In this document: in pieces, positions 30,642-61,891 of the stretch
How positions within the stretch are numbered: the stretch's first letter is position 1
How the letters are laid out: every line of letters begins with the position of its first letter
From: Sporobolomyces roseus
Lineage: Eukaryota > Basidiomycota > Microbotryomycetes > Sporidiobolales > Sporidiobolaceae
DNA length: 64,000 nucleotides
Direction: 5' to 3'
Assembly: GCA_016617785.1 (NCBI GenBank)
Contig: JADILM010000001.1
Coordinates: forward strand, 1,984,001 to 2,048,000
Position numbers and translations under genes: made by a program
The notes under the pieces: model-generated
What the model was told of the DNA's origin: nothing
The model's database searches: none
What the model saw: only the letters and a program-made list of their open reading frames with translations

Positions 30642-32451
30642 CTACAAAAGTCCTGCTTGAGCTAGTGAGCTAGTGAGTACAGCTTCCATGACTGCCGCTA
30701 GTACTGGTCGAATCGAAGTCGTATCGGTTGCCTATTGAAAGAAGCGCGAGTCAGACTTCGCGAGTAAAGGGGATGCGAAGGGAAGTGAGCGAACGGTAGT
30801 GAAGTGTGAGAAAAGCGATCGTTCCTTGTAGCTACTATGTAGATTCCTGAACTTGGCAAGGAAGTAACGTTTGATGCAGTCGAGGTCGTCAACAGGTCCT
30901 CCGTAATCCCTGAGGTATGTACGAATCGAATCAGGGTTGTTAAGCGCTTTCTGTTCAAGGAGGTCGACTTTGTTGAGGCTATCGGTTTGTCAGATTAGGC
31001 CATGGATCCTGTGCGAAAGATGAGATCGAGAGAGGGCTTACAAGAGAACGAAGGATGTTTTGCGAAGCCACGGGGAGCTTGCGATAGATTCCCACAGCAT
31101 CAAGGTTTCCGACATGCGAGGTTGTGTTTCGTCTTCATAGAGGAACTGAACTCCTGCAGAGTCAGCTTTCAGCAACTCGAAGACGATAGAAATCGAAACG
31201 AGCTCACTTGATCGTATTCTGAGATGGCAGCGACGAATATGAGCAGTCCACAGGTTTCGAATTGATGCAACCTGCGTAACAAGTAGGGGATCGTTAGCGA
31301 ACTGGGTCGCTTCAGCTCAGCTCCATCGATGGACACGCTCCGAAAAAACGCTCACCATTTCTTTCTCTCTGACCTTTGACCGCCGACGTCGACAATCAGA
31401 AGTTTCACTCCGTCAACCGTGAATTGCTCCTCGGAAATCCCCGTTGTGCGAATTCTCACTTGCAGAATGTCTTGATCAGTCGGGAGGTAGTCGGGATGGG
31501 ATAGTCGAGGGAGTTCGTCGAAAAAGCTATGAGTAGAACGGATCGTCAGCATTACCATTTGCCTCTGCTCGATCCGAGAGAAGAGACTCGCTAGGGTGCG
31601 GAATCGTTGAGTTGAAAACGAAAACTTTGCTTCATGACTTCCTTCGTCGCAGGTTCTGTCCACAGTGCTTGAATGGCTTTCGCAATCTCGGGTTTGAACT
31701 TTCCAGTCACAATATCGGTTGCGTCTTCCGGAACGAGGGATAAGAGGAAAGCAGCTTCGTCCTTGTGCTTTTCGGGGAAGGGTATGTCGACAACTTCAAA
31801 CCCATTGATCGTTACCTGAGGAATTCAGTAACCTCGTCAGCCCAGCCTCGACGCACTTTGTGGCGTGGACTGACCTGCATGCTTTGTAGTGCATTCCCAT
31901 ATACGATCTCTTTGAACCTTTCCCGTTCTCCTTTCGAAAATGGTCGCGAGTACCTGCCGAACGATCGAAACTGATCAGAACGAGAACGAGAACCTCGTTC
32001 AATTCGATTCTACTCACGCCAATCGCATCTGCTTCACCACTGTCGACTTTCCAGATTCACCTATAGACGACGAGAAAGGATGGCGAACAGAAAGAGAAAG
32101 TTTCGTCAGGTTGCGAAAGAGCTCGCTCAAGAAGAAAGGAAAAGCTCTTACCAGGTCCCAGCATGAGGGTACGTATCGTTGAACTAGCGAGAATCGATAA
32201 CGATGTCGAGGACCAGAGCAAACAGCCGTGTGTGGAGAGAGCGAGGTGGAAAGTTTCGAAAGAGGGCGAGCAAAGGAGAGAAACGGGAAAGAGGTTATGT
32301 CAGCTTCCACAGAGCTTCACAGATCACTCTTTCATACCCCTGACCAAGCTACTCACGCGAGTTCCTTCCTTGTCCTCTTGATCTCCTCCTCAATCGATTT
32401 ACTTTCTGCAGACATGTGCGAACCAGAGCTTGTTGATGCTGCACAACCCAT
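30642..32451 (-). CDS. Heterotrimeric G-protein alpha subunit 2
   Basis: Second Galpha, converging on the first with about 150 nt between stops. The start is at 32451: MGCAASTSSGSHMSAES, again with myristoyl-Gly and palmitoyl-Cys. G1 is LMLGPGESGKSTVVKQM, with Pro replacing the usual Ala or Ser but the GxxxxGKS core intact. Then come PFSKGERERFKEIVYGNALQ, LQVRIRTTGISEEQF (switch I), LLIVDVGGQRSERKKW (switch II), a NKVDL-type G4 near 30960, HFTTATDT (G5, split by an intron) and a C-terminus AVLTSSLAQAGLL with TAG at 30644-30642. Intron 1 is about 165 nt, longer than most here. The two genes differ clearly in N-terminus and intron phase, so they are old paralogues and not a recent duplicate. 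Confidence 0.93.
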
Positions 32452-39494: not shown

Positions 39495-41336
39495 ATGTAC
39501 TTTGTACCACCACCGCCTCCGCTCGCGTCCTACGAATCTCCCTCCATCCCTCCTCTCTCAACTTCCACAATCAAATCTCAGTCGGCGACTCGACGGGACC
39601 TCAATGAACTCGATATAAGCAATCCTATTGGGTCCCTCACGAAGATCCTCACCGAGAGACGATACCTTGCTTTGGTCGCTGGTTGCCTGCTCCTCTGGGA
39701 AGCGTTCCTCGTTTCTGCGATAATCTTGAAGGTGCCATGTGAGTCGTCTATACATTCTCTCATGAAGGATTACTATCGCTCATGCTGGTTCACTAGGAAA
39801 AAGACACGGAAATCGACTTTAAAACTTATCTGCAACAAGCTTCGCTATTCGTAGCTGGCGAAAGAGACTACTCTCTACTCAAAGGTGATACTGGACCTTG
39901 CGTGTGAGCGACTCACTTTTCGAGCGGTTATCAAGTGGTTCCCGGCTCAACCGTGACTGATAATCGATTCCGTTTTTCAAAAAGGTATCCAGCTGGTCAC
40001 ATCTATGCCTATTCCCTTCTATATTACATCGCCGATGCAGGCCAGCACTTACAGCGCGCTCAGTGGATGTTCGCCGTCGTGTATATCGCTACTCTAGCAC
40101 TGGTCTTCGGCATTTATCGTACTAGCAGAAAGGTCAGTCCATTTCCTTCCCTGCTCGGCGGCTCGCTTCGTCGAGATCAAGGCAATGGACCCAGGACTGA
40201 ATGTTGACGTTCTTTTACCCAGGTTCCGCCTTACGCCCTGATCTTCCTCACCTTGTCGAAGCGGATTCATTCCCTCTACGTTCTTCGGCTTTTCAATGAC
40301 TGTCTCGCCATGCTCCTCCTCTACTCGGCTCTCTGGATGTACACTCGACCAGCTGAGAAAGGCGTTTTATCGAGTCGCAAGTGGCTGATCGGAACTTGTC
40401 TCTTCAGGTAACGTACAACTTAATTTCTTAATCAAGAATTTTGCGCTAACGTTGGTGTCTCGCGCAGTCTCGCACTCTCTATAAAGATGTCGATACTCCT
40501 GTTCCTACCTGCTCTCTCCTACCTGATCTTTGTCTACCACTCGCCGCTCGCCTTCGCCCAACATGCTCTTCTTCTCGTCTCATCGCAGATCATCATCGCC
40601 TCTCCCTTCCTCACTTCTGTCACCCTCGCGAAGCAGTACTTTGCTCAAGCTTTTGATTTCAATCGAGAATTCCTGTGGGAGTGGACGGTGAATTGGAGGT
40701 GGTTAGGCGGAGAAGTGTTCGAAGATCCGGCTTTTGGAAAAGTTTTACTCATGATTCACGCGGCCGGTCTGGGAGCGATGGCTGTTCGATGGAGCGAGGA
40801 GGAAGGAGGCGTAACCGCACTCTTGAGGAGGGCTTGGAGGAATCCAGGATCGAGTCCAGCTCGAGCAAGTTTGACGAGCAATCGTAAGGTCTCTTCCCGT
40901 TTCTCAGTCTTTGGCCCTTCCAAACTCATACAATCGAACGCGTGCCCGCTCTGTGCAGGTACTGTGACAGTGTTCTTCACTTCGAACCTGCTCGGCATTT
41001 TGTGCGCGAGGTCTTTGCATTACCAGTTTTACGTCTGGTTTTACCACTCTCTCGTGTGGCTTTTGTGGGAGACATGGGACGGGCTCGAGATTGATGTGAT
41101 GCAAAGGTCAGTTTGTCACAAACCCGATGCCCTGCACGGATGACCAGTGTTGACGATTTCGCTGTAACAGGCTCGTCTTTGCATCTCTGATCGAGTTTGG
41201 GTTTCATTCGTTCCCATCTACGGTCAACAGCTCTCTAGGGTTGGTGTTGAGCCTTTTGATCGTCATCGGGGTAGGATGGTATGGAAGACCGGCTGGCGAG
41301 CAAGGGAAACCCGTCGAGAAGTCAAAAGAACAGTGA
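39495..41336 (+). CDS. ALG3: Dol-P-Man:Man5GlcNAc2-PP-Dol alpha-1,3-mannosyltransferase
   Basis: Multipass ER enzyme adding the sixth mannose, the first luminal one, to the dolichol-linked N-glycan precursor. ATG at 39495. After TM1 ([20 protein letters not shown]), splicing at an AAAAAG acceptor gives [12 protein letters not shown], then [17 protein letters not shown] and [17 protein letters not shown], the luminal ALG3 signature. Then [74 protein letters not shown] and a last TM. The stop TGA is at 41334-41336. Five introns. Its 3' end lies only 218 nt from the left inverted repeat, so it marks the border of the gene-free zone. Confidence 0.93.
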
Positions 41337-42208
41337 ATGGTCTGTATCAAATTTAGATTCTTGAGCCGATGGCCGCCGAGGGAAGCGAGCGCGCGAGGAG
41401 AGAGACTGAGAACTGGTATGGATGCCGTAGGCACACAAGGCGTTACTCTGGACTGTTCTCGAGGTTAATGCACCTCAAAAAAATGGCACAAAAGGTTCCC
41501 AGATGAGCAGACACAGGAGCCCTTGACCTGCGTGGACAATCCACTGAAAGATGCAAGAAGATAGAACGCTGCTGAAGTCCGGAAGAGTAACCTGGTACGA
41601 AAGGTGAGTTTGAATTGCGATTCTGCAGAGAAGGCGGCACTACCAGCAGGTGAGTTCCTCGGCTTGGAGGGTTTCAATGGCAGAGGACTTCAGTGGCTGT
41701 CTCGAGCGGAAAGTGCAGCCACTTCAGCGAATCGAATGAGAGGTTGCAAACATGCGAGTTCCACTCGGATATAGATTTCAAAAGGACAGGGCTGCCACGG
41801 AAGGACCGCTGGGGTTGGCGGGTTCGCGAGCTGTTCTTGGTGCTTGATAAGCGAGTGAAGCGGTCAGCGAAATCAGAGATCTGTCGTTGTCGAGAGAAAC
41901 TGAGAAATTCGAAGTGCGAGGAAAACAACTGAGAGAAAGAGCCTTCCTCCTCTCCTCAACTTTGCACTCGATTTGTGATCTTCTTCTTCTCTTGATATCT
42001 CACTCGCAACATTCTAATAGCTTGACAGGGAATTGCAAGCCTGGCTTACGCCATTTCTGTCGGATGCATAAATTGCCTTCTCTTTTTCTCCTCCTGTTCT
42101 CGCTCTACTGCTCGGATGACCCTCGGCCAGTCTCCCAAAAGAGCGGAGCGAGCAAGAAAGTCAACGCTCCCCAGCTACCAGACAAAAAGAACCTCTTCCC
42201 AAAAAAGA

Positions 42209-42280
42209 CTTCCTGGCCGGGAATTGAACCCGGGTCCCACGCGTGACAGGCGTGTATACTAACCACTATACTACCAAGAA
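42209..42280 (-). tRNA. tRNA-Asp (GTC), left-arm copy
   Basis: Mirror copy of the tRNA at 49111-49182. It folds with a 7-bp acceptor stem (one G-T pair), anticodon loop CTGTCAC giving GTC, T loop TTCAATT and discriminator G, as expected for Asp. A T6 run follows on the minus strand as Pol III terminator. Confidence 0.93.
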
Positions 42281-42306
42281 AGAGAGGTATTTTTTTAATT
42301 TTCCAC

Positions 42307-42393
42307 TGCTCAGTGGCGGGATCGAACCGCCGACATCAGACTAAACTTATGAAAGTATTAGGTCTGCATCATAACCAACTAGATCAACCGAGC
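42307..42393 (-). tRNA. tRNA-Ile (AAT) with intron, left-arm copy
   Basis: Mirror copy of the tRNA at 48998-49084. Acceptor stem GCTCGGT/ACTGAGC, anticodon stem CAGAC/GTCTG, loop CTAATA then a 13-nt intron after position 37, T arm GGCGG-TTCGATC-CCGCC, discriminator A. It lies 26 nt upstream of tRNA-Asp in the same direction. Confidence 0.8.
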
Positions 42394-43500
42394 TCATGTT
42401 GTGGCGGCAATATTTTGCAACATGATGGTAAGTAAAATTGAAAACGTCAGGCCGAAGCAGCAAGCAACTCAAAGCGGTACACATAGTCTGTTCTGCTTTG
42501 CTGTTTTGTTCACCTTAGGATGATAGCTCACCAAGTAAAGCATATAAAAATGCACACACGCAACAATGCAAGACGGCCTCGGTGGCAAGCGCTGTGGCTT
42601 ATCTGATGACCTGACGTACTGCTGCCACTTCTCTATTTGCAATGGACATCAGAAACCACTCACATTTGAAGTGACCTTGTGTACACTCCTTGGGAGTGCT
42701 TGCAATTGCGTGTGAGATCCCTTGAATTTACCAAGGGACCTCAAATGACAAGGAACCTCACATTACATTGCAATATCATATTGAGTACTGTCTTGTTAAG
42801 GAGAGAAAATCAAGAGAAAGTCCAGAAAAGACAAGAGAATCGATCTCAGCTGCGGCTTGGAGGCCAGCCAACCAGAGCGGGAGTCTACAGAGCCAATGAA
42901 ACAACACAACAGAACCAATGTAATGTAGCAATACATCATTGAGCATAATGAGCGTTTGCTGCAACACATCATAGTATCAGCTGTTCTCTCCTGGCTCCAC
43001 TCGCAAGGTTTTGACCCATAGTCACTCTTAGGAACTCGCTCGCAAGGTCTTGACGTATAGTCAGTCATTCTTAGAAACATCACGTGGAGTACTGCCTCTT
43101 GATCACTTGCAATCGTGTGGCTCACAGCCAATTCCGTGTGAGTAGCTTTCCATGAGCAGGTATGCCGTGAGACTGGTGCGTGTTGTGTGCTGTGGTCTGT
43201 TATCAGCTTTGTACAATGGACAAGAGCAGGATAAATGTGGTCAAGATTCAACGTATGTTGCATCATTCTTGCAGGGCAAAGAAGCTCGTACGACGATGCC
43301 TAGCGCTGGCATGTTGATTAGTGACATCCGCACTGACTCATACAAGTGTGCAGCAGTAATCGACATGCCGTAAGTCCTCTCAGTGCCAAAACCCACTCAA
43401 TGGTTGATGATCAGCATTCTGAGCCATGACAGACTTGTATGCTAATTCCTCTGTATGTCTACTGTGTACTGTCATGTGTATGAGTACAGCTTTGAATGGG

Positions 43501-43877
43501 ATGCTGAAGGAAAATCTTGAGGTCCTCAGTTACAGTCTGGAAAGTATTGCTTGAGAGGAAAAGAATTCAATCAAGTTTTGGTTTGAAGATGTCAATCTCG
43601 TTCAATCTGTTGGCGGAGGGTTGTCAGCAGTAGCTCAATGCAAGCAACAGGACAAGGCAAAGAACTTGAGTGCGTACAGGAGAGCAAACGAGCTATGGTC
43701 AGACCACACTTACTAGAACTTAAGCTTTTGAACAGCATCTTCCCTTCTGACAATTGATTCGCTGATTTGTCCTCATACAGGCTCTGATCGCACTCGAGAT
43801 TGCGACGGCGAAGATTAGTTAATCGACAGCCCCAGAAGCGTGAATCAATTCTTCCTCTCACTTCTCTGTCCTCCAAC
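43501..43877 (-). pseudogene. Decayed fragment of Galpha gene 1, left-arm copy
   Basis: Matches 29884-30266 of the intact Galpha gene, from the GGQRSE region through an intron into the exon after the NKID motif. The intron is still present, so the copy was made from DNA and not from mRNA. Frame and key residues are lost. Many changes are CGA to CAA or TCG to TTG. Confidence 0.88.
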
Positions 43878-44409
43878 AGAGAGGATGGGAAATGTGCTGA
43901 TCACTGCTGCATAATTGTGCGAGCATAGCATTGAAGGGCCGGCAGACATCACAGTGGTGCAGCAGTCACAAGGTTTTTTTCCTGTTCGGCGTGTTGCAGT
44001 GTAGGAGTCCTTTGCTGGCAGTCACTTTGTCAATAGCTTCGCTACAGCAAATTTACCTTCTATGTAGCCCCATCAATCCAAGAAAACATACAAAACAATG
44101 AACCTGATCAAGAGCGTTTGTGTCCACTCGCATCTGGTGTAGATGAATGCTAATCATCTCACCCGCAATGTCTGTGCCATCCCGTATAGTCTGCACGCGG
44201 TGCTGAAAGTGGCAACGCAACTGCAAGCTATGGCGAGTCCATCCTCCAAAAGCTGTGAACCTTGAACCACACATTTGCGAATTAAGTGAATGCCAATGTA
44301 AGAGAGTTGAAGAAGGTGAATGCAATAGGACGAGTGCTGCATCCGTCCAGGTGTCCTGAGCAATGAAGTCTGTAAGCGTTGACGAAGACGCCCACAGGAA
44401 GCCATAGCT

Positions 44410-46981
44410 TTTCACACAGAGGGGAGACCTGATATATACACAAATCTGATGCTTGATGAGGACGGCCGTATTCTCTTGTGAATGGCATGCTCAGCTTGCT
44501 TCTCTGCTTACACTGACTACTTTCTGGCAGTACCCTTGAGCTGACCATAGGTACAACCACGCAGTCTCCCTATCTGCATTTAGGTACTGCACCCTGACGT
44601 ACCGCACTAAAACCCACTCCTCCCCTTCGGTTATAGGGTAGTTTTCGACGCTCTGCCATGCTCTGCCAGCCAAGCCGTTTCTTTAGCAGAAGTTGTACGT
44701 AGTCGTCGGATTCGCTCGTCGAGACATTGACAACGTGTATATATTCAATGAGAGTAGTGATGAGAGTAGAGGTAGGCAAAGAAGAAGGAAGAAAAGAATC
44801 AGAGAATAGAGTAGATTCAATACCAGTTGACTGAACAATCTGTAGCCTTAATGCCACAGCCAAAAAGCAGTTTCACCAATACCAAATTACAGTTCGAGAG
44901 CAACAGTGAAGTCTAAGCAATGAAGGGAAGCTCGAATTTCTTGTAAGTGAACAAGAAGAGTTGGAGAAGATAGGGCAGTAGTCATGGCAGGACACCTTCT
45001 GGCTCCTATAAAGGTTCACATTTTGACTCTCCCACCTAGTCTGATGACGCAGCTTCTGCTTTCTTACTCGGGTTCTGGATCGATACTCTGTCCCTTGCCC
45101 AAGAATTGCGCTGTGCAATCGCTTTTCATTGCTCATCCTCCGCCTTCTTGCTTGCAAGACATTGTTCGCAAAGTCTAGCATCAAGAGCAGACGGTGTCGC
45201 CAGGCTTTGCTGCATGCAGGAGCATTGGTTGTGGCAATTTTGGCTGTTTAAGATTGAGGTAGATCAGAAAGTTGGTCTCATTGGCGCTGGTTGGGTGCTG
45301 TTGCCTGGTGAAACATCAGTGCCAAATGAAAACTGTCGCAATACGTTTCTACATTTTCTATATTTTCACAATACTGCTTACCCTGCACTTTCTCTACAAA
45401 TCATGAGTTTTGATTCACTCATTTATGTTTCGATATTCTGTCCTCATTTAAGACACCTTATACCTTCATTTGTTGATCTTGTAGGTTCTTTCAGTCAGGC
45501 CAAAGTTGCTCATACGGAGCAGTTGTACCACAGAAAAGAGTTCTCGCACCCCCTTGCGTTCACCTTTTGGTATGGTTTTGTCTCGCAGAGTTTCTCTTTC
45601 CTTTGCACGCTGTTCTGGCCTATGCTTCATCCGATGCTTTGAAGCGCTCACAGGCAGACTGCTGTAGCTTCGCATGCATTGCAGCATTCTTGCCCAGAGT
45701 GGGATTTGCCAGTCTGATTGAGGATGTGAGAAGTTTGATGGCAAACAAGAATCTACGAAAGAAGGGAACACATCATGGAGGAGCTGCTCAATCACGAGAT
45801 ATAATGAAGAATGACAGTCAAGCTATTCCAGAAAAGGGGCAATGTCGAGTACAATACGGACGTTGACCTCCAGAGTTGTGACCAGGGCTGCAAAAGAAGC
45901 GTCCACCAGAGATGGTGTTCAAGGCACAACATACGCAAAATGCAGAAAGAAAGGAAGAGTCACTCAGACTGGTGCAGATATGAGTTCACAATGGAGAGAT
46001 CAGACGGCCTGTGAGTCATGTCTGCTGCCTGCACTTCAACAGAGAATATCTGACAGGTGCAAAGTCACCCTGTGCCCACAGAAACATCTCAATGTCCAAG
46101 TATTGCTGCTCTGAGGCTTCAGCTATATGCTGTGTGACTTTCTGTGAGCTTCCCTATGTGGGACTATGACAGGCTTGCTCGAGTCCTCAGGTGTATACTT
46201 GCTCTTGCAACAATTGCTGAGCTGCTGTGCAACGGTTGCACCTGAAGAAAGTGATGCTGCAACAGATTACTAGACTAGAGCGGAGGGTAAAGCTCCTCAA
46301 GTCCAGCACTACAGAGAAAGCAAGAAAGATGGAGGGAGAGGTGCAGACATAATGAAGAGCAAGAAGGTGCAAAGCAACACCCTGACCAGGCTTGTTTTGT
46401 AGTGTGGGAGGCACAGGAAGATAAAAGCAACTGGTTTCGACAATGCGGAGATTAGCGTGCGGCAGAACATGTCAGGCAAACTAGGATAGATAGCATGTCT
46501 TGATGCCCTTTAATTGATAATATAATATGTGCCATCACTGCCACACTGCTCTTCTAGCCATTGACAAGGCATAACAAACAGATACTCAGGGTGAGTGATA
46601 ATTCTGTCACAAACAGTGGTACATTGCAGAATATTGCTATCTTCAGATTCGCCGATGTTCCCCCTTGCTCCGTATCCTTGATATTGACGAGTTTTCTGCA
46701 ACAAGTGCAATTTGGCCAGAGCGACCAGCAGTGTCTATCTTGATTGGCTCCTGCGTTCCAGTTCTTTCTTCACGAACAAGGAACTTGAAGTACTGCTCCT
46801 CTTGACCGAGCTGTTGTGGGGACCCAACTCAGAATCTGTGTGTGTCATTTCCCTGCTCATGCCTGAACATGACTTTCCTGTGACGGCTTCCGCCCTGACT
46901 AAGCAAGAAGCAACAGACCAAACAGAAATTTGTGCAAGATGAAGCAGAAAGTCAATGAGAGTCGGCTTCAGACCTCTGTCT
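44410..46981. other. Unique core between the inverted repeats
   Basis: 2,572 nt present once. Six-frame reading gives only short frames (the longest about 178 codons at 45106-45642) without recognised domains, splice structure or codon style of the neighbours. It is moderately AT-richer and CpG-poor relative to flanking genes, for example around 45340-45480. No tRNA, rRNA or CRISPR seen. It sits at the centre of symmetry of the 8.3-kb structure. Confidence 0.75.
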
Positions 46982-47513
46982 AGCTATGGCTTCCTGTGGG
47001 CGTCTTTGTCAACGCTTACAGACTTCATTGCTCAGGACACCTGGACGGATGCAGCACTCGTCCTATTGCATTCACCTTCTTCAACTCTCTCACATTGGCA
47101 TTCACTTAATTCGCAAATGTGTGGTTCAAGGTTCACAGCTTTTGGAGGATGGACTCGCCATAGCTTGCAGTTGCGTTGCCACTTTCAGCACCGCGTGAAG
47201 ACTATACGGGATGGCACAGACATTGCGGGTGAAATGATTAGCATTCATCTACACCAGATGCGAGTGGACACAAACGCTCTTGATCAGGTTCATTGTTTTG
47301 TATGTTTTCTTGGATTGATGGGGCTACATAGAAGGTAAATTTGCTGTAGCGAAGCTATTGACAAAGTGACTGCCAGCAAAGGACTCCTACACTGCAACAC
47401 GCCGAACAGGAAAAAAACCTTGTGACTGCTGCACCACTGTGATGTCTGCCGGCCCTTCAATGCTATGCTCGCACAATTATGCAGCAGTGATCGGCACATT
47501 TCCCATCCTCTCT

Positions 47514-47890
47514 GTTGGAGGACAGAGAAGTGAGAGGAAGAATTGATTCACGCTTCTGGGGCTGTCGATTAACTAATCTTCGCCGTCGCAATCTCGAGTG
47601 CGATCAGAGCCTGTATGAGGACAAATCAGCGAATCAATTGTCAGAAGGGAAGATGCTGTTCAAAAGCTTAAGTTCTAGTAAGTGTGGTCTGACCATAGCT
47701 CGTTTGCTCTCCTGTACGCACTCAAGTTCTTTGCCTTGTCCTGTTGCTTGCATTGAGCTACTGCTGACAACCCTCCGCCAACAGATTGAACGAGATTGAC
47801 ATCTTCAAACCAAAACTTGATTGAATTCTTTTCCTCTCAAGCAATACTTTCCAGACTGTAACTGAGGACCTCAAGATTTTCCTTCAGCAT
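47514..47890 (+). pseudogene. Decayed fragment of Galpha gene 1, right-arm copy
   Basis: Same sequence as the left-arm fragment. Recognisable protein remnants are DQSLYEDKSANQLSEGKMLF against DQSLYEDESVNRLSEAKMLF in the intact gene. Part of the switch II exon, the intron and the following exon are all retained at DNA level. Confidence 0.88.
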
Positions 47891-48997
47891 CCCATTCAAA
47901 GCTGTACTCATACACATGACAGTACACAGTAGACATACAGAGGAATTAGCATACAAGTCTGTCATGGCTCAGAATGCTGATCATCAACCATTGAGTGGGT
48001 TTTGGCACTGAGAGGACTTACGGCATGTCGATTACTGCTGCACACTTGTATGAGTCAGTGCGGATGTCACTAATCAACATGCCAGCGCTAGGCATCGTCG
48101 TACGAGCTTCTTTGCCCTGCAAGAATGATGCAACATACGTTGAATCTTGACCACATTTATCCTGCTCTTGTCCATTGTACAAAGCTGATAACAGACCACA
48201 GCACACAACACGCACCAGTCTCACGGCATACCTGCTCATGGAAAGCTACTCACACGGAATTGGCTGTGAGCCACACGATTGCAAGTGATCAAGAGGCAGT
48301 ACTCCACGTGATGTTTCTAAGAATGACTGACTATACGTCAAGACCTTGCGAGCGAGTTCCTAAGAGTGACTATGGGTCAAAACCTTGCGAGTGGAGCCAG
48401 GAGAGAACAGCTGATACTATGATGTGTTGCAGCAAACGCTCATTATGCTCAATGATGTATTGCTACATTACATTGGTTCTGTTGTGTTGTTTCATTGGCT
48501 CTGTAGACTCCCGCTCTGGTTGGCTGGCCTCCAAGCCGCAGCTGAGATCGATTCTCTTGTCTTTTCTGGACTTTCTCTTGATTTTCTCTCCTTAACAAGA
48601 CAGTACTCAATATGATATTGCAATGTAATGTGAGGTTCCTTGTCATTTGAGGTCCCTTGGTAAATTCAAGGGATCTCACACGCAATTGCAAGCACTCCCA
48701 AGGAGTGTACACAAGGTCACTTCAAATGTGAGTGGTTTCTGATGTCCATTGCAAATAGAGAAGTGGCAGCAGTACGTCAGGTCATCAGATAAGCCACAGC
48801 GCTTGCCACCGAGGCCGTCTTGCATTGTTGCGTGTGTGCATTTTTATATGCTTTACTTGGTGAGCTATCATCCTAAGGTGAACAAAACAGCAAAGCAGAA
48901 CAGACTATGTGTACCGCTTTGAGTTGCTTGCTGCTTCGGCCTGACGTTTTCAATTTTACTTACCATCATGTTGCAAAATATTGCCGCCACAACATGA

Positions 48998-49084
48998 GCT
49001 CGGTTGATCTAGTTGGTTATGATGCAGACCTAATACTTTCATAAGTTTAGTCTGATGTCGGCGGTTCGATCCCGCCACTGAGCA
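48998..49084 (+). tRNA. tRNA-Ile (AAT) with 13-nt intron
   Basis: A cloverleaf can be drawn: 7-bp acceptor stem with one wobble, D loop AGTTGGTT, anticodon loop CTAAT-A, intron CTTTCATAAGTTT, T arm GGCGGTTCGATCCCGCC. Anticodon AAT and the T arm resemble yeast tRNA-Ile. No T run follows before tRNA-Asp begins 26 nt downstream, suggesting a shared transcript. Confidence 0.8.
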
Positions 49085-49110
49085 GTGGAAAATTAAAAAA
49101 ATACCTCTCT

Positions 49111-49182
49111 TTCTTGGTAGTATAGTGGTTAGTATACACGCCTGTCACGCGTGGGACCCGGGTTCAATTCCCGGCCAGGAAG
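49111..49182 (+). tRNA. tRNA-Asp (GTC)
   Basis: 72 nt including discriminator G. Acceptor TTCTTGG/CCAGGAA, D arm with AGTGGTTA, anticodon stem CACGC/GCGTG around CTGTCAC, T stem CCGGG/CCCGG. A T6 tract just downstream (about 49185) is the Pol III terminator. Confidence 0.95.
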
Positions 49183-49836
49183 TCTTTTTTGGGAAGAGGT
49201 TCTTTTTGTCTGGTAGCTGGGGAGCGTTGACTTTCTTGCTCGCTCCGCTCTTTTGGGAGACTGGCCGAGGGTCATCCGAGCAGTAGAGCGAGAACAGGAG
49301 GAGAAAAAGAGAAGGCAATTTATGCATCCGACAGAAATGGCGTAAGCCAGGCTTGCAATTCCCTGTCAAGCTATTAGAATGTTGCGAGTGAGATATCAAG
49401 AGAAGAAGAAGATCACAAATCGAGTGCAAAGTTGAGGAGAGGAGGAAGGCTCTTTCTCTCAGTTGTTTTCCTCGCACTTCGAATTTCTCAGTTTCTCTCG
49501 ACAACGACAGATCTCTGATTTCGCTGACCGCTTCACTCGCTTATCAAGCACCAAGAACAGCTCGCGAACCCGCCAACCCCAGCGGTCCTTCCGTGGCAGC
49601 CCTGTCCTTTTGAAATCTATATCCGAGTGGAACTCGCATGTTTGCAACCTCTCATTCGATTCGCTGAAGTGGCTGCACTTTCCGCTCGAGACAGCCACTG
49701 AAGTCCTCTGCCATTGAAACCCTCCAAGCCGAGGAACTCACCTGCTGGTAGTGCCGCCTTCTCTGCAGAATCGCAATTCAAACTCACCTTTCGTACCAGG
49801 TTACTCTTCCTGACTTCAGCAGCGTTCTATCTTCTT

Positions 49837-50910
49837 ACTGCCTGATCTGGGTATTGTAAATGTGCGACTGAGTCGGATTGGGACGAGATCATCGACGATT
49901 GGCGCGTCCGAAGGAGATCCTCTCTCTCCCTTCAATCATCACGAGTATATCTAGTCAGTACGAGCCCAGGTCTACGAGCTTCAAGGAGGCCAGCAAAGCA
50001 CTCACCGCACGTCGCAACTGTCTCTTGATTCACCAAACGCTCGCAGGTTCTCGATTCTACAGTATTATCGGTTCCTTCGTTGTCAATACAAGCTCGCAAG
50101 TTCGCTAACTGTAAACGACAAGCCAAATGAAAAAGCCATTTGTGTCTACCTCCAAAGGGGTCGACAGTCTGTTCCTGCGCGCTCGCACGTTGAGCTCGTA
50201 CAGCGATTCGCCGTCGTTCAATCCCCGGGAGGTCGCGAACCTCTGTTCGAATTGAATGCGAAAGTGACACAAGCGACGGATTTGACGGCGAGGAACGAGT
50301 GAAAAGTTAAATCCAACCGCACGAGTGCGAGCGGCGAGAAAAGCCTCCTGTCGCGAGTCGAGCCTGCGAAGCGAGCGAGAGACGGTTCTCTTCTGTCGAA
50401 TCAATCTGCTCGCTCGCCGCTCGCAAGAAAACACTTTCAGTTCGACGACTCAGCTCGATGAAGGACGTCGAAGAGAACTTTTCGCAAAGAAACCGAATTC
50501 CTCTCAGTCGAAGATTCGGATGGAAAGCCTCTCTTAACCCACAAAATAATAGTAGCGTTACAGTATCATTGCGTCGAGTCTGTGCAAGCCAGCTACAGAG
50601 CGAGACGAACCACAAAGTTCTACGAAGGTGCATTCCGGCCGAGATGACGTCTGCAAAAGCAGTCTCTTTTGAACAAATTGAGATTGAGAGCTCTAGGGAA
50701 TTCGAGCCATCTTGATTTCTTTCAGTGTTTTGTCGCCTTCCAAACTCGCCCTCGGCCGCCTGACAAGTGGGTGATAGATATATACGCCTACAGCTTCACG
50801 GGCAGGTCCCGCTTACAGCCGCTCGCTCAGTTTGACGACTTCTTCAATTTACATCTCACAACGAGCCATTCTACTCCACCACAACACAAGCTAGGTCATT
50901 AGAGACTGGA
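49837..50910. other. Gene-free flank to the right of the inverted repeat
   Basis: About 1.07 kb before PDE1, with ordinary host composition (CpG and TCGA common). No gene, tRNA or repeat seen. The proximal part presumably holds the PDE1 promoter. The matching left flank (41337-41554) is only 218 nt and not similar. Confidence 0.5.
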
Positions 50911-52642
50911 ATGGACATTATAGATCTCTCTCCAGAAAGCTCTGTTGCTTCCTTCGAGCTACTGGTTGTCGTAGGTTCACTCCGCTTCTCCCGAAGTCGA
51001 ATTGAATTGATCTTGGTTTTGAACAGGGATGCGGAGGTGGCCCATTAGAGAACAACCTCAGCTGCTACCTCGTCAAATCAAAGGACAGCCCTTGGTCAAA
51101 TTGCGCTGCCATCGAAGGTGAGAAACAACGTTCACTTCCTTTCGTCTTGTCTGACCCTCTAACGATCTTGTTTCACAGGAGGGTCGAGCTTGGGTGCTAT
51201 AGCTACTCTGTTTGAACGAAGTCCAGAATCGTTTAGAGGGTTTGGCGGGTTGGTGACGGACAAAAAGAAAGAGAATGAACGAGTTTTCGAGATCGGAAGC
51301 AGTAAATTTGCGGGTCAGGTCTTGGAGATGATCCGGACTTTCACAATCTCCCATTCCCACTTCGATCACATCGCTGGACTCGTACTCTCCTCGGCCGCCT
51401 GTACGGCGACAAAGACGGTGTATGGGCTCGAAAGTACACTTGTGAACCTCGAAAAGGTGATGGATTGGCACCTCTGGCCTGATCTAGGGACGGCTGAGGT
51501 TGGTCCAGTAGCGGGGAAAGCGTTCAGGTGGAAAGAGTAAGTTATATATTGATTCGACTACTACCTCTCGCGAATAGAAAAATTGACAGTTTTGACGTAG
51601 AGTCGCGATAGGACAAGCCTATCAGATCTGCGACTCGCTGACGATTTCTGCTTTACCTCTCTCACACGGCCGTGATCCTCGCCATCCGCTGTCCTACGAA
51701 TCGACTGCATTCTTTGTTCGCAACTCGGAGTCTTCCCGAGAATTCCTCTTTCTAGGAGACGTCGAGCCAGGTATGTCCCACACCTTTGCCCTTCAATCTA
51801 TCTAAGTAATTCTGACTCGGATCCGATCGTACAGACTCGATTTCTGCGCGTCCCTTGACTCGCAGGGTCTGGGAAGTTGCCGCGAAGAAAATCGTCAGCG
51901 AGCAGCTCTGCGTTGTGTTCCTCGAATGTAGCTATCCCGTAAGCTTTCGAGACTTGCTTTCGGGGATCACGAGAAGAAGCTCATTCTCAGTGGCCTTTCA
52001 CAGAATTCACAACCAAACAACAAACTCTTCGGTCATCTAAAACCCCTATTTGTTCTCGAGGAGATGCAAGTCTTAGCTGGTTGCGTGAACGAAGAGAGAC
52101 AAAGAAGGAGCTTAGAGAAATCAACCTCCCCTTTAAATGGCGTGAAAGGTTCATCATTCCTCAATTCTTTTGGATGTTCGATCGAGAGCTGATTCCCGGA
52201 TCATTGCCAGTCGTTATTCACCACATCAAGGATGACATCTTTACTCCACCGCCAGTTTCGCCTGAACCGCTGAAAGAGAGCAAACCATCGTTATCGGTCG
52301 CTGCACTTTCGATGTCTCCACCAATCGCCACTATCCCTCTCAGACGACCATCTCTACAATTACCCTATTCACCATCTCTCTCGTCTCTTCCTCGCTCGTC
52401 TCCCGGACTCGACTTTCATCCGCCTGCACCTACGGCTGAAGAAGATGAGTACGACAATGAGATTGAGACGGTAGAAGAGACAGTACACGAAAGGATCGAA
52501 CGTGAATTGAACGAAGGCGAGGCCGAGGCCAGAACAGGAGTTTGTTTCCTCCTTGCTAAACAAGGCATGAGATTGAGTCCGTTCTCTCGTCTCCTTTTCA
52601 AAATTCTGCACCGCTGACAGCTGTTTGATTCCAGTCTTTTGA
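50911..52642 (+). CDS. PDE1: Class II cyclic-nucleotide phosphodiesterase (low-affinity cAMP PDE)
   Basis: Metallo-beta-lactamase-fold enzyme hydrolysing cAMP. ATG at 50911 (MDIIDLSPESSVASFELLVV), then GCGGGPLENNLSCYLVKSK, IEGGSSLGAIATLFERSPES, FTISHSHFDHIAGLVLSSAA with the HxHxDHxxG metal motif, LPLSHGRDPRHPLSYESTAF, FLFLGDVEPDS (metal Asp), LCVVFLECSYP, LFGHLKPLFVLEEMQVLAG (GHL motif) and PVVIHHIKDDIF (IHIK-like). Before the C-terminal block (ERELNEGEAEARTGV) sits a Pro/Ser-rich insert of about 85 residues containing LRRPSLQLP, a PKA-type R-R-x-S site. The final splice gives stop TGA at 52640-52642, but that donor (GTCCGT) is weak. Confidence 0.9.
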
Positions 52643-56825: not shown

Positions 56826-57246
56826 CGTAGGATGTTAAAGGTTTTCGTGTGAGTGGAAAGACGAGGCCAGAGGAGAAGGGCAACTTTTTTTTTTTTCCGC
56901 TTCAACTCTCGACTCTGGAGTTACCGTCGTCGACGGAGCGTGAATCAATACAAGCTATCGTAGTCTATCAGAGTCAATCCTCATTCAATGCGAAGAACAG
57001 GTTCGTAGAAAAACCGAATTCTCTGAATCATTTCGCAACTCCAGAGTTGAACAGAAAGGTTCGATAGAGAGGACAAGGGGTGGGTATCATTTTGCGAACG
57101 AATCGTGCAGTACTACTAGAGAGGGCAAAGTAACGAGGGAAGTAGAATCAACAAAGGGGGAAGTGGAAACCAGTTGGGAGAGTCAGAGGAAGGGATCAAT
57201 TCGAGTCGCTGCACTCGAAACGCGGGCGGGGGGGAGATAACCTGGT
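56826..57246. other. Intergenic, with duplication breakpoint at 57168
   Basis: RRP1 promoter side and UBC12 3' flank. From 57168 rightward the sequence recurs at 62851. A T-run occurs at about 56887-56896. Confidence 0.6.
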
Positions 57247-58317
57247 TCAAGACCGTTGCGCCACGCTTCCGACTCGTACATCATCGAACTGTTCCGATCC
57301 TACATAACCTCCACGCATTGAGCTTTTGACATTTTGGATGAATCGATCGCGATTCGCTCGAAGGTCGTTCGCAGCGTCTGTGAGGCGTGAAGAACCGGAT
57401 AGGTCAGCTCAGGAGGGACGAGATAGAAAGGCTTTGGAGAGTGAGGAAGTCTAGAGTATGGATTCGTCGAAGGGGAGAAGAAACCGTTCTCATTTCCCTT
57501 GGTTGGTACGGCGACGTCTCGAGACGGGTTGGAGGACCTACGTGTCCTCGTCGCGAAGACACAAAACCATCGCGTTGAGATGCACGCAAAGCGAAAGCTT
57601 ACCTTTGTTCAAAGGATCATCTGCGTTGGGTTCGAGGAAGAGATACTGGATTCCGACCATGACTGCGTTGAGGTTGAGAACGGGCTTCCAGTCCTCGCGA
57701 AGAATGTTGAGACAGACATTGCCAGCTAGATCGAGATTAGGGTGGTAGATCTGAAGGATTTCACCGCAGAACAGCGAGTGGAAGAGGAAGAAAGGGCAGA
57801 ACGGGGAGTCAAGCGATGTCAGTCATGCACTCGTCAAGAGAAGTCACAAATTCGGGTGAGAAGAACGAGATGAGCTAGTGAGGAACACGAGGAGACGAAA
57901 CTCACCTTTGGTACACACTTGACTTTCGGAGCGTCGTGAGGATAGTTGTTGTTGATCGCGAAAGTGAATTTGAAAGATCCTCCCTTGTACATACCTACTC
58001 TCCCTATGCGTCAGCGGAGCGACAAAGACACAGGAGGAGGGGAGGACGCGATCGATTACCTTCATCGGGAGTAATGGTAAGTTCAAAGTTGAGCAAATCT
58101 TCGGGGTTTGGGAAGTTGGTCTTCATCGTCGATGGGAGGTCGAGTTCAGTGAGATCTGTTCGTGTCGGAAGAGTGAGTCAATAAAGCGATCTTGCGAACG
58201 AATTTTAGATAATTTCGGATTGATCCGACATTTGTCACTCCCTCGAAACGCTTCTTCTTCGCTTTCCGGTATCCGTCTTGAGAGCGATAGACACGACCAC
58301 GTTGCCGTATCCCTGTC
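57168..58317 (+). repeat. Direct repeat, copy 1 (matches 62851-64000)
   Basis: At least 1,150 nt recurs 5,683 nt downstream in the same orientation. I saw one mismatch (A at 58058, G at 63741). It begins in the UBC12 3' flank and covers most of UBC12; the right limit is unknown because the second copy meets the window edge. Confidence 0.95.
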
Positions 58318-58721
58318 GTCCTCTCCAGTGCATGGGCTCAGATGTCGATAAATTGCGATCAAGTCGACCTTGAACTGAGTGACCCGGTTGTCGATCAAGA
58401 TCCGTTCTCATGATCGCAGTGTTCGTATACTCCCTCTTCGCCCAAGTAGCCTGCCAATGGAGAGGAAGCTTACCTTTCTGAACCCTGATCAAAGCGGCTG
58501 AAGTTTTGGGTTTCTTCTTAGCTGCCGCATCCTCGTTCTTCTTCAATGACCAAATCTATGACAAGCGACGTGTACCAGAGACGAGATCGCGAGGTTAGGT
58601 TAGAAGTTGATTGAAAGAGGAGGAAGGGAAGGGAAGGGAAGGCAAGTGGAGGGAGAAGATTAGCTTCCACTTATGTTGGATACAGGAAGAGCGCAGAGTA
58701 ATTTGAGCTCACTTTCATCAT
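57247..58721 (-). CDS. UBC12: NEDD8-conjugating enzyme
   Basis: E2 enzyme that transfers Nedd8/Rub1 to cullins. Start at 58721; MMK is spliced to [20 protein letters not shown], the Ubc12-specific N-terminus that docks the E1. Then [72 protein letters not shown] with the catalytic Cys, [20 protein letters not shown], and the last exon [20 protein letters not shown] then [13 protein letters not shown]. Stop TGA at 57249-57247. Six introns or so, one about 190 nt (after PLNK, about 57594 to 57390). It is divergent from MOCS1 across 129 nt. A second copy starts at 62930. Confidence 0.95.
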
Positions 58722-58850
58722 CTTGGGCGGGATTCGTGATCTTGTAAAGTCGTGATTGAGAGGCAAGAGAGTGCAACTAGCTTCGTATCGTATCTCCTCT
58801 CTCTTCCTCTCTCTCTCCTCCTCTTTAACGCGATAGGTACTTGAAGACAG

Positions 58851-61141
58851 ATGAGGGTAGTAAGGAGCTCCATCCCTCCAGCAGTCCACGTCTTCCGATC
58901 AATACCTAGAACGGTTCCTCCACTTTCTTCCTTATCTCTCCCGAAAGTCAACTACTCGACCCGCACGGCTGTGAGTCTTCTATACTTAGATCTGATCTGA
59001 TATTGCATGGGACTCATACTGTCAAGAGGTTCAGGCTCAGCGAAAGATCTCGCAAATCGACCTTCAACAACCTTTCGTCTCTCCCAATCTCATCGACTCC
59101 TTCGGAAGGCAACACGATTACTTGCGGATAAGCCTGACGGAGAAGTGCAACCTGCGATGTACGTCTTGCTTGCCTTGATCAGCGATAAAATCCTCGCAAC
59201 TAAACCTTTCGGAATCTTTTAGGTACTTATTGCATGCCCTCGACGGGAGTTCCTCTCCTTCCAAAGGACGACTTGCTCACAACCGACGAGATTGAAAGAG
59301 TCGCAAAGCTCTTCATATCGAATGGCGTCAAGAAGATACGACTTACAGGAGGAGAACCAACAGTTCGCAAAGATTTGATCGACGTTGTTTGTAAGTACTC
59401 GTACCTACACTGTTCACTCGCGATGATCCTGTAGCTCAATATGCTTCAATTACTACAGCCCGAATATCAGCCTTGAAACCGAAAGTAGAGTCTCTCGGGA
59501 TGACCTCGAACGGCGTGACCTTGCGAAGACATCTTCCCTCTCTCGTCAAAGCCGGCCTGACGCACCTCAACCTCTCTCTCGATACTCTGGATGAATTCAA
59601 ATACGAGCTCATGACCCGTCGAAGGGGGTTCCACAAGGTCATGGAAAGTCTCGAAGTAGCGAAAGAACTGAGAAAAGATGGATTGAGAGTCAAGATTAAC
59701 GTCGTCGTGATCAAAGGCTTGAACGATATGGAGGTCTCTGACTTTGTCGAAATGACCAAAGACGAAGACATCACCGTTCGTTTCATCGAGTACATGCCGT
59801 TCGAAGGTGAGCAAAACCCTATCTTTCGCTCTGACACGAGTTCTGCTGATGTGTTGCTGTCGTCGCAGACAATCGATGGTCAACCACAAAACTCGTTCCC
59901 TCGTCGACGCTTCTCTCGCAAATCCAAGCCCATTACGACTCGTCTCGATCGATCGACAAACTTTGCGATTCACCTTCCGACACGACTCGAGCTTATCGGG
60001 TCAATGGTTATCGTGGTTCATTTGGATTCATCAGCAGCATGACGGATCATTTTTGTGGATCCTGCTCGAGACTGCGAGTTGGTGCTGATGGAGGAGTCAA
60101 GGTTCGCTTTCTACCTCGATTTGTGTTTTTGCAGCTTTGACTCATTCCTCCACTGTCTCTTACAGGTTTGTCTCTTCGGTCCTCCAGCACTCGCTCTCCG
60201 ACCCCTACTTCGCTCGTTACCTTCTACTCTGCAAAATGACACGACCATCTCGCAAAAGATTGGAGAGATTGTCTGGAAGAAGAAATTCGCTCATGACGGG
60301 TTAGGAGGTGCGTTAGGAATTCAAGAGAAGGGAAAAATGGGGAGTATGGTCGGAATTGGAGGCTGATAAGATACGCCCTTCTGCTGGTATCCGAGGCGCA
60401 ACAGGTACGTCAATCCCCCTGAATCGTGTTCGAAGATCCGAGGAAGCTCAATCGAGGGCTCTGCTGGGTACAGTACCTCGATACTTACCGACACGAAAGC
60501 CCACGAGACACCGATCTTCTATACTCGGTACACTCTCGGCCTCGCCCCTTTCACCCCCTTCTTCGTTCAGCTCTCTCCGACTATTCTCAACAACACCTCG
60601 CTTACAAAAACCGAACAAACTATCAGCTCAGTCGCCTACACTGTCTCATATCGATCCAAAAACTGGGAAAGCCTCAATGGTCGACGTAGGTGGAAAGGCT
60701 GTCACAGTTCGAACCGCAACAGCGAAAGGGAAGATTTACCTCAATCGGACAGCTTTCTCCATGATCGATCTCGGCAACTCCTCGTCTTCATCCACCATGG
60801 AGTCCAAGAAGGGAGACGTCATGTCGATAGCGCAAATTGCGGGAATTCTGGGATCCAAGCAGACCAGCTCCCTCATCCCCCTCTGTCACCCTCTATCGCT
60901 CTCACACATCTCCGTCACTCTCGTACCTTCCCAAGTCGACTCGTCAATCGAGATCACCTGCACCGCAAAATGTCGAGGTACAACGGGTGTCGAGATGGAG
61001 GCTTTGATGGGTGTCTCCGTCGCTGGATTGACAGTTTGGGACATGTGCAAAGCGGTGGCAGGGGAGGAAATGAGTCTCGGTGATATCAGGGTTGTCGAGA
61101 AAAGCGGAGGAAGAAGCGGTGACTGGAAGAGGGGGGAGTAG
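58851..61141 (+). CDS. MOCS1: Molybdenum cofactor biosynthesis MoaA-MoaC locus (MOCS1/cnxABC type)
   Basis: Makes cyclic pyranopterin monophosphate from GTP. ATG at 58851 with a basic, acid-free leader ([20 protein letters not shown]), probably mitochondrial. The MoaA part has [20 protein letters not shown] spliced to TYCMP, giving the radical-SAM CxxxCxxC, then [43 protein letters not shown] and the C-terminal cluster [18 protein letters not shown]. The frame ends [14 protein letters not shown] at 60366; a C-terminal Gly-Gly is essential in MoaA. An optional intron (60344-60404) removes Gly-Gly and the stop and runs in frame into Moa[67 protein letters not shown]. Stop at 61141. MoaC has no ATG of its own before its conserved start. 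Confidence 0.9.
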
Positions 61142-61235
61142 CGTTCGTACGATGTTGAATTAATCTTTGATTCAGCTAGTCTGCCGCTTGCGGAAATGCT
61201 CGAGCTATGCGCGATAACGATGAACAGAGAGAGAC

Positions 61236-61280
<45 letters not shown>

Positions 61281-61891
61281 TGAGCTCCTCAATTTCCAAG
61301 ACCGTTTTGCAACAAACTCGACTTTGATTCGCTCTTTGAGCCAGGTTCACGAGGCCGTGACTGTTGGAATGCATTCATGGCGACTCGTCTAACTACGTAT
61401 TGTGAGCGTTGTCCTATCGTTCACCCTTCGGCAACCACTTTTCTCTCGGTAAAGTATCGCCTCGACCTTTCATCTCCTGGTCTAGTCATTCTCCCGTCAT
61501 CGATACGCTCATCTAGTACGGCTCCTCCCCCTCCAGTCCAAATAGCTCTCGAGTAGCCGTGGCTGACTACTTGCGGAACATCGGAAGGTTTGTCGGATTC
61601 GATAGCGGTTCAGCGTCGTCCTCCTGCTCGGCGGCCGAGTCTTACTGTGTTCTCCAAGAAGACGGAGAGCCGTGGATGGGCTTTAGCTGAAGAAAGGTGG
61701 AAGAGCCCGTGGTTGAGAGTAGGAAACCTCCTGCGCCAACGGTGAACATGACAATTCGTTCCCTGGTGGTCCGTCTCGTGTCAGCTCAGCGAATAAAAGT
61801 CCCCCCCACAAGCAGAACAGATGAAGATGCTTACGAAGATCCGCTGATCTAACATTTCGAAAACTGGTCGCTTTCGAATTCCCCTCATCGT
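61142..61891. other. Convergent intergenic region with (GA)n repeat
   Basis: About 750 nt between MOCS1 and the GPI2 stop. A GA/CA simple repeat lies at about 61225-61278. No gene supported. Confidence 0.5.

What the first reader, a model, noticed from the sequence alone, without database searches (positions are those of the whole stretch)
41337..50910. Centromere-like architecture: unique core flanked by homogenised inverted repeats and tRNA genes
Seen: a 9.6-kb zone with no recognisable protein gene in an otherwise gene-dense window. It holds two inverted repeats of exactly equal length (2,855 bp, about six differences), a 2,572-bp unique core, and a tRNA-Ile/tRNA-Asp pair near the outer end of each arm. 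Known: Candida tropicalis and Komagataella phaffii centromeres are 2-5 kb inverted repeats around a short core, and Schizosaccharomyces pombe centromeres have inverted repeats with tRNA genes as barriers. Inference: this could be a small regional centromere of a basidiomycete yeast. Near-identity over the middle of the arms implies gene conversion or very recent origin. Alternatives: a one-off inverted duplication, or a foldback element.
Basis: partly seen in the sequence, partly recalled or inferred. Interest (0 to 1): 0.9.

Follow-up and report, generated by a model that had tools for sequence, protein, structure and literature searches.

The report
Likely small centromere of red yeast
This stretch is very probably a centromere, the place where a chromosome is pulled during cell division, of a red yeast related to Sporobolomyces: mirror-image DNA arms with tRNA genes surround a gene-free core, and the same design with different sequence turns up on several other chromosomes of the same genome.

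Summary
The host is a Sporobolomyces-like yeast. It is not a one-off: contigs C2, C5, C7 and C12 carry core-plus-inverted-repeat loci with mirrored tRNA genes and otherwise different sequence. C4, C9 and C10 have a similar island without a detected inverted repeat. All eight islands are poor in CpG and rich in TpG/CpA; 0 of 156 control windows are. In the window this domain ends inside the tRNA-Ile genes. A diverged ~185-bp repeat occurs in seven of the eight islands and, in the 313.7 kb searched, not clearly elsewhere. Best explanation: a small regional centromere bounded by tRNA genes. Against it: no CENP-A data, no DNA methyltransferase found, loci chosen by tRNA pairs or relics, and no site read on five of 13 nuclear contigs. 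Within my literature searches, such centromeres are undescribed in basidiomycetes.

The parts
41555..44409 (+). left arm of the inverted repeat
46982..49836 (-). right arm of the inverted repeat, 99.79% identical to the left
44410..46981 (.). unique core, 2,572 bp, CpG o/e 0.47
42333..49058 (.). CpG-poor, TpG/CpA-rich domain (best-scoring segment), both ends inside tRNA-Ile genes; inferred centromeric/heterochromatic domain
42207..42281 (-). tRNA-Asp (GTC), left arm
42307..42393 (-). tRNA-Ile (AAT, intron), left arm; left edge of the CpG-poor domain
48998..49084 (+). tRNA-Ile (AAT, intron), right arm; right edge of the CpG-poor domain
49110..49184 (+). tRNA-Asp (GTC), right arm
42841..42968 (+). 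copy of the ~185-bp island repeat (family A), left arm
48423..48550 (-). copy of family A, right arm
43501..43878 (-). decayed fragment of the G-alpha gene, left arm
47513..47890 (+). decayed fragment of the G-alpha gene, right arm
44740..44932 (.). LTR relic in the core (71-73% to LTRs of elements on C8 and C1)
40487..41143 (+). flanking gene, ALG3 exon (PF05208)
51190..51540 (+). flanking gene, cAMP phosphodiesterase class II exon (PF02112)

Best explanation
A small regional centromere of a Sporobolomyces-like yeast. Shown: a unique core without recognised genes inside near-identical inverted arms, a 6.7-kb CpG-poor domain that covers core plus inner arms and stops at tRNA genes, and recurrence of this design on other contigs. 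Inferred: CENP-A nucleosomes and the kinetochore sit on the core and/or inner arms; silent chromatin fills the rest of the domain; RNA polymerase III/TFIIIC complexes on the tRNA genes stop it from spreading towards ALG3 and the phosphodiesterase gene; gene conversion between the arms keeps them alike, while unselected DNA inside decays and collects LTR and gene fragments. Position is probably kept epigenetically, since the cores share no sequence apart from diverged repeats.
For: Same architecture on C2 (arms at least 3,381 bp, core 1,731), C5 (arms 6.4 kb, core 2,460), C7 (3.25 kb, core 2,489) and C12 (6.7 kb, core 2,993), each with mirrored tRNA genes. CpG-poor segment of 4.1-7.1 kb in 8 loci (C10 cut by the stretch read) with scores 148-328, versus 8-13 in 5 other loci and at most 12.2 in 20 simulated 60-kb sequences. 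Domain edges lie in a tRNA gene (C1, C5), 35 bp (C12), 71 bp (C2) or 354 bp (C7) from one. Loss follows place, not duplication: outer C12 arms and LTR elements and the tandem array at 57-64 kb are not CpG-poor. Family A: 16 of 18 hits in 313.7 kb have E<=0.003 and all 16 lie in islands (the eight copies that built the model match by construction); the C2 copies were found by a first model that did not hold them. Genome-wide DNA hits are at one place on each of C3, C4, C5, C10, C11, C12. ORFs in the islands are no longer than chance gives (C4 the nearest to significance, 0.05).
Against: No CENP-A, H3K9me, Hi-C or transcript data. C4 and C9 islands have neither an IR nor an intact tRNA gene within the 20 kb first read, and no IR was found at C10. 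'One per contig' is not proven: only about 0.31 Mb of 22.4 Mb was read, loci were chosen by tRNA pairs or relics, the genome-wide DNA searches missed the known family A copies of C1, C2 and C7, C6 and C13 gave no site, and C3, C8, C11 sites are unread. No PF00145 methyltransferase was found, so the CpG loss lacks an enzyme. The C1:776-796k tRNA-Pro inverted repeat (91%) without CpG loss shows that tRNA inverted repeats arise without an island. C7's edge is 354 bp outside its tRNA genes, and in C2 a tRNA-His gene lies inside the depleted segment. C9 has no family A copy.
Confidence: 0.78

Rival explanations
1. Heterochromatic islands that are not centromeres: gene-free, tRNA-insulated pockets in which repeats and gene fragments collect; centromeres lie elsewhere.
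For: LTR relics and a G-alpha fragment sit inside; no kinetochore data; C4 and C9 lack IR and intact tRNA genes; one per contig is not proven.
Against: One place per contig in the genome-wide family A hits, as far as those searches reach, domain size of about 5-7 kb in all loci read whole, mirrored arms on 5 contigs. No retrotransposon cluster that could be another centromere was seen among the 7 RVT_1 matches (8 candidates; counts are lower bounds).
Confidence: 0.13
2. Ordinary noncoding DNA next to a chance inverted duplication of tRNA genes; CpG poverty is just the neutral composition of gene-free sequence.
For: No methyltransferase found; the C1:776-796k tRNA-Pro inverted repeat shows that such duplications occur.
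Against: Background 500-bp windows whose longest open stretch is 50-80 codons (31 + 132 windows) have mean CpG o/e 0.95 and 1.03 and TpG/CpA 0.98 and 0.91; island windows of the same kind 0.56 and 0.52, and 1.31 and 1.40. Five core-plus-IR loci of different sequence.
Confidence: 0.05
3. Repeat-induced point mutation of the duplicated arms, unrelated to centromeres.
For: CpG-to-TpG signature; TCG is most reduced (ratio 0.26 against 0.53-0.66 for the other three NCG), a context I recall (no call) as typical of RIP-like mutation in Microbotryum.
Against: The unique cores are depleted as much as or more than the arms, whereas duplicated outer arms of C12, LTR pairs and the 5.7-kb tandem array keep CpG o/e near 1 or above. 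TCG is over-represented in the background, and inside islands the four NCG contexts are about equal.
Confidence: 0.02
4. A foldback transposon or an assembly artefact.
For: Inverted arms around a spacer; 6 differences only.
Against: 42500-44400 occurs at its two arms and once more as the G-alpha gene only; different flanking genes on either side; C7 arms diverge at the outer end and C12's right arm holds a 652-bp insert, unlike a folded-read artefact.
Confidence: 0.02

Closest known systems
Inverted-repeat small regional centromeres of budding yeasts (Komagataella phaffii, Candida tropicalis, C. parapsilosis; passages of PMC7263194 seen)
   Same: ORF-free core between kilobase inverted repeats; cores differ between chromosomes in K. 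phaffii and C. parapsilosis; IRs lost in some relatives.
   Different: A basidiomycete; tRNA genes in every arm of the five IR loci and a CpG-poor domain ending at or near them; no CENP-A data here.
Fission yeast centromeres (S. pombe, S. octosporus, S. cryophilus; abstract of PMC2040200; passages of PMC6538654)
   Same: Central region, inverted inner repeats, tRNA genes at domain borders, non-homologous cores.
   Different: No outer repeat arrays seen here; tRNA genes here lie at the outer edge of the CpG-poor domain. That fission yeast centromeres are far larger is recalled.
Malassezia short regional centromeres (passages of PMC7025860)
   Same: Short regional type in a basidiomycete.
   Different: Those have an AT-rich core (78% AT) with a 12-bp motif and no inverted repeats; here the core is 46% GC with long IRs.
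Cryptococcus and Ustilago large regional centromeres (as described in PMC7025860 passages)
   Same: Basidiomycete; LTR-retrotransposon sequence present, here as relics.
   Different: [quoted passage not shown] here about 7 kb, and the genome gave only 7 RVT_1 matches.

Membership tests
Small regional centromere, inverted-repeat type | CENP-A (Cse4) enrichment | not testable with these tools
   needs ChIP-seq
Small regional centromere, inverted-repeat type | unique core flanked by long, near-identical inverted repeats | tested here: met
   window and C2, C5, C7, C12; not met at C4, C9, C10 as far as read
Small regional centromere, inverted-repeat type | ORF-free kilobase-scale region | tested here: met
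   longest ORFs within chance in 8 of 8 islands (resampling share 0.05-0.87); Pfam scan of 8 of 24 window ORFs, one weak match
Small regional centromere, inverted-repeat type | exactly one per chromosome | tested here: inconclusive
   8 of 13 non-mitochondrial contigs with an island read; 3 more indicated by relic hits only; none found on C6 and C13; no contig with two family A places, but those searches miss diverged copies
Fission-yeast-like centromere | tRNA genes at the domain border | tested here: met
   C1, C2, C5, C12 within 71 bp, C7 354 bp; C10's left edge is at a tRNA but the stretch begins there; C4 and C9 have no intact tRNA gene
Fission-yeast-like centromere | outer repeat arrays beyond the inner inverted repeats | tested here: not met
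   no repeat next to the arms at the window locus, 38-54 kb
Malassezia-type centromere | AT-rich core (about 78% AT) | tested here: not met
   core GC 0.462
Cryptococcus-type centromere | large, retrotransposon-rich array | tested here: not met
   6.7-kb domain with one LTR relic seen; 7 RVT_1 matches in the genome
Foldback transposon | dispersed copies of the inverted unit | tested here: not met
   (query 42500-44400; 41555-42499 was not searched genome-wide)

The most novel reading that the evidence does not exclude
A basidiomycete lineage (Sporidiobolales) has evolved, convergently with ascomycete yeasts, a centromere type built from a tRNA-bounded domain of about 5-7 kb with conversion-maintained inverted arms and a lineage-specific ~185-bp centromeric repeat, while keeping an Argonaute-like gene. 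This would break the proposed link in basidiomycetes between short centromeres and loss of RNAi, and the border of centromeric chromatin would be readable from DNA alone as a sharp step in CpG decay at the tRNA genes.
Probability: 0.53. Interest if true: 0.87.

Novelty: new variant of a known kind. Interest (0 to 1): 0.8.

Why it matters
[quoted passage not shown] If right, this gives candidate centromeres for 8 of 13 non-mitochondrial contigs, a sequence-only way to look for them in relatives, parts for stable plasmids in red yeasts, and a case for asking why inverted repeats and tRNA genes recur at unrelated fungal centromeres. It also bears on the proposal that genome size and complete RNAi machinery set centromere type (PMC7025860 passages): here short candidate centromeres coexist with Piwi-domain matches; Dicer and RdRP were not searched.

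Tried and rejected
Foldback transposon: rejected on copy number. RIP on duplicated DNA: rejected because unique cores are depleted while duplicated outer arms, LTR pairs and a tandem array are not. Plain noncoding composition: weakened by the open-frame control. Retrotransposon-rich centromere elsewhere: only 7 RVT_1 matches, on C1, C4, C5 (2), C8 (2) and C12. tRNA repeats as such: C1:776-796k (tRNA-Pro IR, 91%) and C4:1515-1535k (same-strand tRNA-Lys pair) are not islands. LTR elements on C8 and C1 with identical LTR pairs and a single LTR copy on C5 are not in islands.

Methylation: PF00145 gave no match in the genome, so a present-day 5mC mechanism is not claimed; intron-split exons could hide one. 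The directional test (outside CpG to island TpG/CpA 34, reverse 14, over four copy pairs; two outside controls together 0 and 1) fits CpG decay in the islands, but three pairs share one LTR reference and one pair (C1 core) is nearly even, 5 to 4.

Mended on checking: I first took the C2 hits for a repeat relic. By position they are tRNA-Ser genes, so the choice of C2 rested on tRNA hits alone; and the genome-wide DNA searches missed known family A copies on C1, C2 and C7. For both reasons I lowered the main confidence from 0.80 to 0.78 and the novel case from 0.55 to 0.53, and raised two rivals by 0.01 each.
Full report
OBSERVATION. The inverted repeat is exact as described: arms 41555-44409 and 46982-49836, 2,855 bp, ungapped, six differences; core 44410-46981, 2,572 bp. 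ARAGORN and Rfam give tRNA-Asp(GTC) at 42207-42281(-) / 49110-49184(+) and an intron-bearing tRNA-Ile(AAT) at 42307-42393(-) / 48998-49084(+). Five of the six arm differences lie within 511 bp of the core (binomial P about 0.001), which fits recent gene conversion over the outer arm. The zone lies between an ALG3 exon and a class-II cAMP phosphodiesterase exon. Of 24 ORFs of 80 aa or more in 41337-50910 (several are mirror copies), 8 were given to Pfam; one matched, weakly, G-alpha (E 0.008). That piece (43501-43878, mirrored at 47513-47890) is 82% identical to part of the G-alpha gene at 29073-30433, so it is a decayed gene fragment carried by both arms.

HOST AND GENOME. The window is C1:1984001-2048000 of a 22.4-Mb, 15-contig genome; C1 is 4,742,556 bp. 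A squalene epoxidase exon is 87% identical to Sporobolomyces phaffii and 81% to S. blumeae over 83% of the query. C14 and C15 carry dense, repeated tRNA sets and are taken to be mitochondrial (inference), leaving 13 nuclear contigs.

COPY NUMBER. A query of 42500-44400 found the two arms and the G-alpha gene only; 41555-42499 was not searched genome-wide. The core matched itself plus, over about 341-569 of the query, LTRs of elements on C8 and C1, a single LTR copy on C5, and single places on C9 and C4, at 67-73%, so the core holds an LTR relic.

A SEQUENCE MARK. Over 42.0-49.0 kb CpG observed/expected falls to 0.34-0.63 and TpG+CpA rises to 1.25-1.52; elsewhere in the window CpG is 0.84-1.32 and TpG+CpA below 1.12, except 4001-5000 with CpG 0.60 but TpG+CpA 0.98. 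A dinucleotide log-odds score, trained on pieces of the C2, C7 and C9 islands and on background, places the best segment at 42333-49058, inside the tRNA-Ile genes on both sides, with score 327.8; 20 simulated 60-kb sequences reach at most 12.2, five non-island loci 8.1-13.0. In background controls, 0 of 156 1-kb windows pass CpG<0.7 and TpG+CpA>1.15; of 500-bp background windows at most a share of 0.004 per class passes, against about 0.8 in islands, and those without long open frames keep mean CpG 0.95-1.03.

SISTER LOCI. Besides the window, 12 loci were read (hit flanks apart). Five were picked from inverted or paired tRNA hits (C5:178k, C7:184k, C12:688k, C1:776k, C4:1515k): three are islands, two are not. 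Five were picked from LTR-relic hits (C9:798k, C4:135k, C5:931k, C8:334k, C1:2612k): two are islands, three (LTR copies of two elements and a single LTR) are not. C2 was picked from inverted hits, which by position are tRNA-Ser genes, and an inverted B-box pair (first 100 of 504 matches listed; reversed control pattern 100); before it was read I expected an island there. C10 was picked from a family A hit and a tRNA. Both are islands. So 8 of 13 loci are islands, on 8 different contigs; of the 6 chosen by tRNA pairs, 4 are. Five have core plus inverted arms plus mirrored tRNA genes: C1 (2,855; core 2,572), C2 (at least 3,381, cut by the stretch read; core 1,731), C5 (6,407; core 2,460), C7 (3,252; core 2,489), C12 (6,702; core 2,993, with a further mirrored piece outside). 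Arms differ by 3-9 substitutions and 0-2 gaps, except C7 with 65 substitutions and 16 gaps; the first 60 of these 81, those printed, lie in the outer 280 bp. C4 and C9 have neither an IR nor an intact tRNA gene in 20 kb; C9 holds a 109-bp stretch 90% identical to the tRNA-Ser region of C12, and a 502-bp piece of C9 recurs inverted 19 kb away, so a broken IR is possible there. C10 (4.2 kb read, no outer flank) has a tRNA-Thr at its left edge and no inverted partner in the genome.

EDGES. Distances from the island edge to the nearest tRNA gene are 0 bp (C1, C5), 35 (C12), 71 (C2) and 354 bp (C7); the share of positions of each locus equally near is 0.005, 0.053, 0.078, 0.216 and 0.184. The two edges of a locus are mirror copies and count once. 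C10 (0 bp, 0.017) is not counted because the stretch begins there. In C2 a tRNA-His gene, and in C7 both tRNA genes of each arm, lie inside the depleted segment. CpG loss follows place, not duplication: the outer C12 arms and the LTR pairs on C8 and C1 and the tandem array at 57-64 kb of the window are not depleted.

A SHARED REPEAT. An HMM from copies in C1, C4, C5, C7, C10 and C12 also found copies in both C2 arms (E 5.7e-13). A sequence-only profile that then included C2 gave 18 matches in 313.7 kb (7 kb of it given twice): 16 with E<=0.003, all in islands of C1, C2, C4, C5, C7, C10 and C12, and two weak ones (0.23 in the C10 island, 0.5 at window 14281); the eight model copies match by construction. 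C9 has none. Genome-wide DNA searches place this repeat at C3:251859, C4:141.4k, C5:185.3/188.4k (mirror copies), C10:836.9k, C11:75.6k and C12:701.4k, one place per contig; they missed the more diverged copies of C1, C2 and C7, so second places are not excluded. One search also shows another relic in inverted orientation at C8:1546124-1546331 / 1550477-1550684. C3, C8 and C11 are therefore predicted sites, not read; C6 and C13 gave no site.

MACHINERY. PF00145 (DNA methylase) gave no match; PF02171 (Piwi) matched at C1:3958924-3959825 (two pieces) and C5:1756968. Present-day cytosine methylation is therefore not claimed. The comparison of island copies with outside copies gives 34 CpG-to-TpG/CpA against 14 the other way over four pairs.

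MECHANISM. Committed reading: a small regional centromere; CENP-A on core and/or inner arms (inferred), silent chromatin limited by Pol III complexes on tRNA genes (inferred by analogy with S. pombe, PMC2040200 abstract), arms homogenised by gene conversion (supported by the near-identity and the difference pattern), decay of unselected DNA inside (shown as composition).

COMPARISON. It works like the IR centromeres of Komagataella and Candida (passages of PMC7263194) and the tRNA-bounded ones of fission yeasts (passages of PMC6538654), and differs from the basidiomycete types described in PMC7025860 (passages). A 2025 budding-yeast survey (passages of PMC12711049) reports centromeres that consist of large IRs in some species. 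Searches (listings only, 25 of 203 shown) showed no description of centromeres in Sporobolomyces or Rhodotorula; PMC9027234 has the word only in a reference, PMC12584667 only as a protein name. Preprint servers are not held as such, and most subscription papers are missing.

Noticed in passing
57168-64000 and beyond (L012): A 5,683-bp unit holding MoaC and GPI2 genes is repeated head to tail at least three times (57168, 62851, 68528 in joined coordinates; the third cut by the stretch read) at 99.5-99.9% identity: a recent amplification or an assembly effect.
   Followed up: partly
29073-30433 and 31352-31663: Two G-alpha genes or gene parts side by side in opposite orientation; the first is the likely source of the fragment in the arms.
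   Followed up: partly
C12:710114-710765, C1:3261380-3262030, C4:140564-141203: A ~650-bp element (94%) inserted in only one arm of the C12 inverted repeat, not yet homogenised.
   Followed up: partly
G000 contig ends: Exact (TTAGGG)4 was found only at right-hand contig ends (C2, C4, C5, C6, C12; 27 forward, 0 reverse matches).
   Followed up: no
C9:811487-811988 and 830604-831105: A 502-bp stretch of the C9 island, with a tRNA-Ser-like piece, recurs inverted at 99% 19 kb away; possibly a broken inverted repeat or a recent inversion.
   Followed up: no
C14, C15: tRNA sets repeat on C14 with a period of 28,061 bp, as expected of a concatenated mitochondrial genome.
   Followed up: no
C5:1876533-1880667, C6:133-412: Sequence near contig ends, around a reverse transcriptase frame on C5, is shared with the inner arms of C7 and C12 and with the C8 inverted pair.
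   Followed up: no
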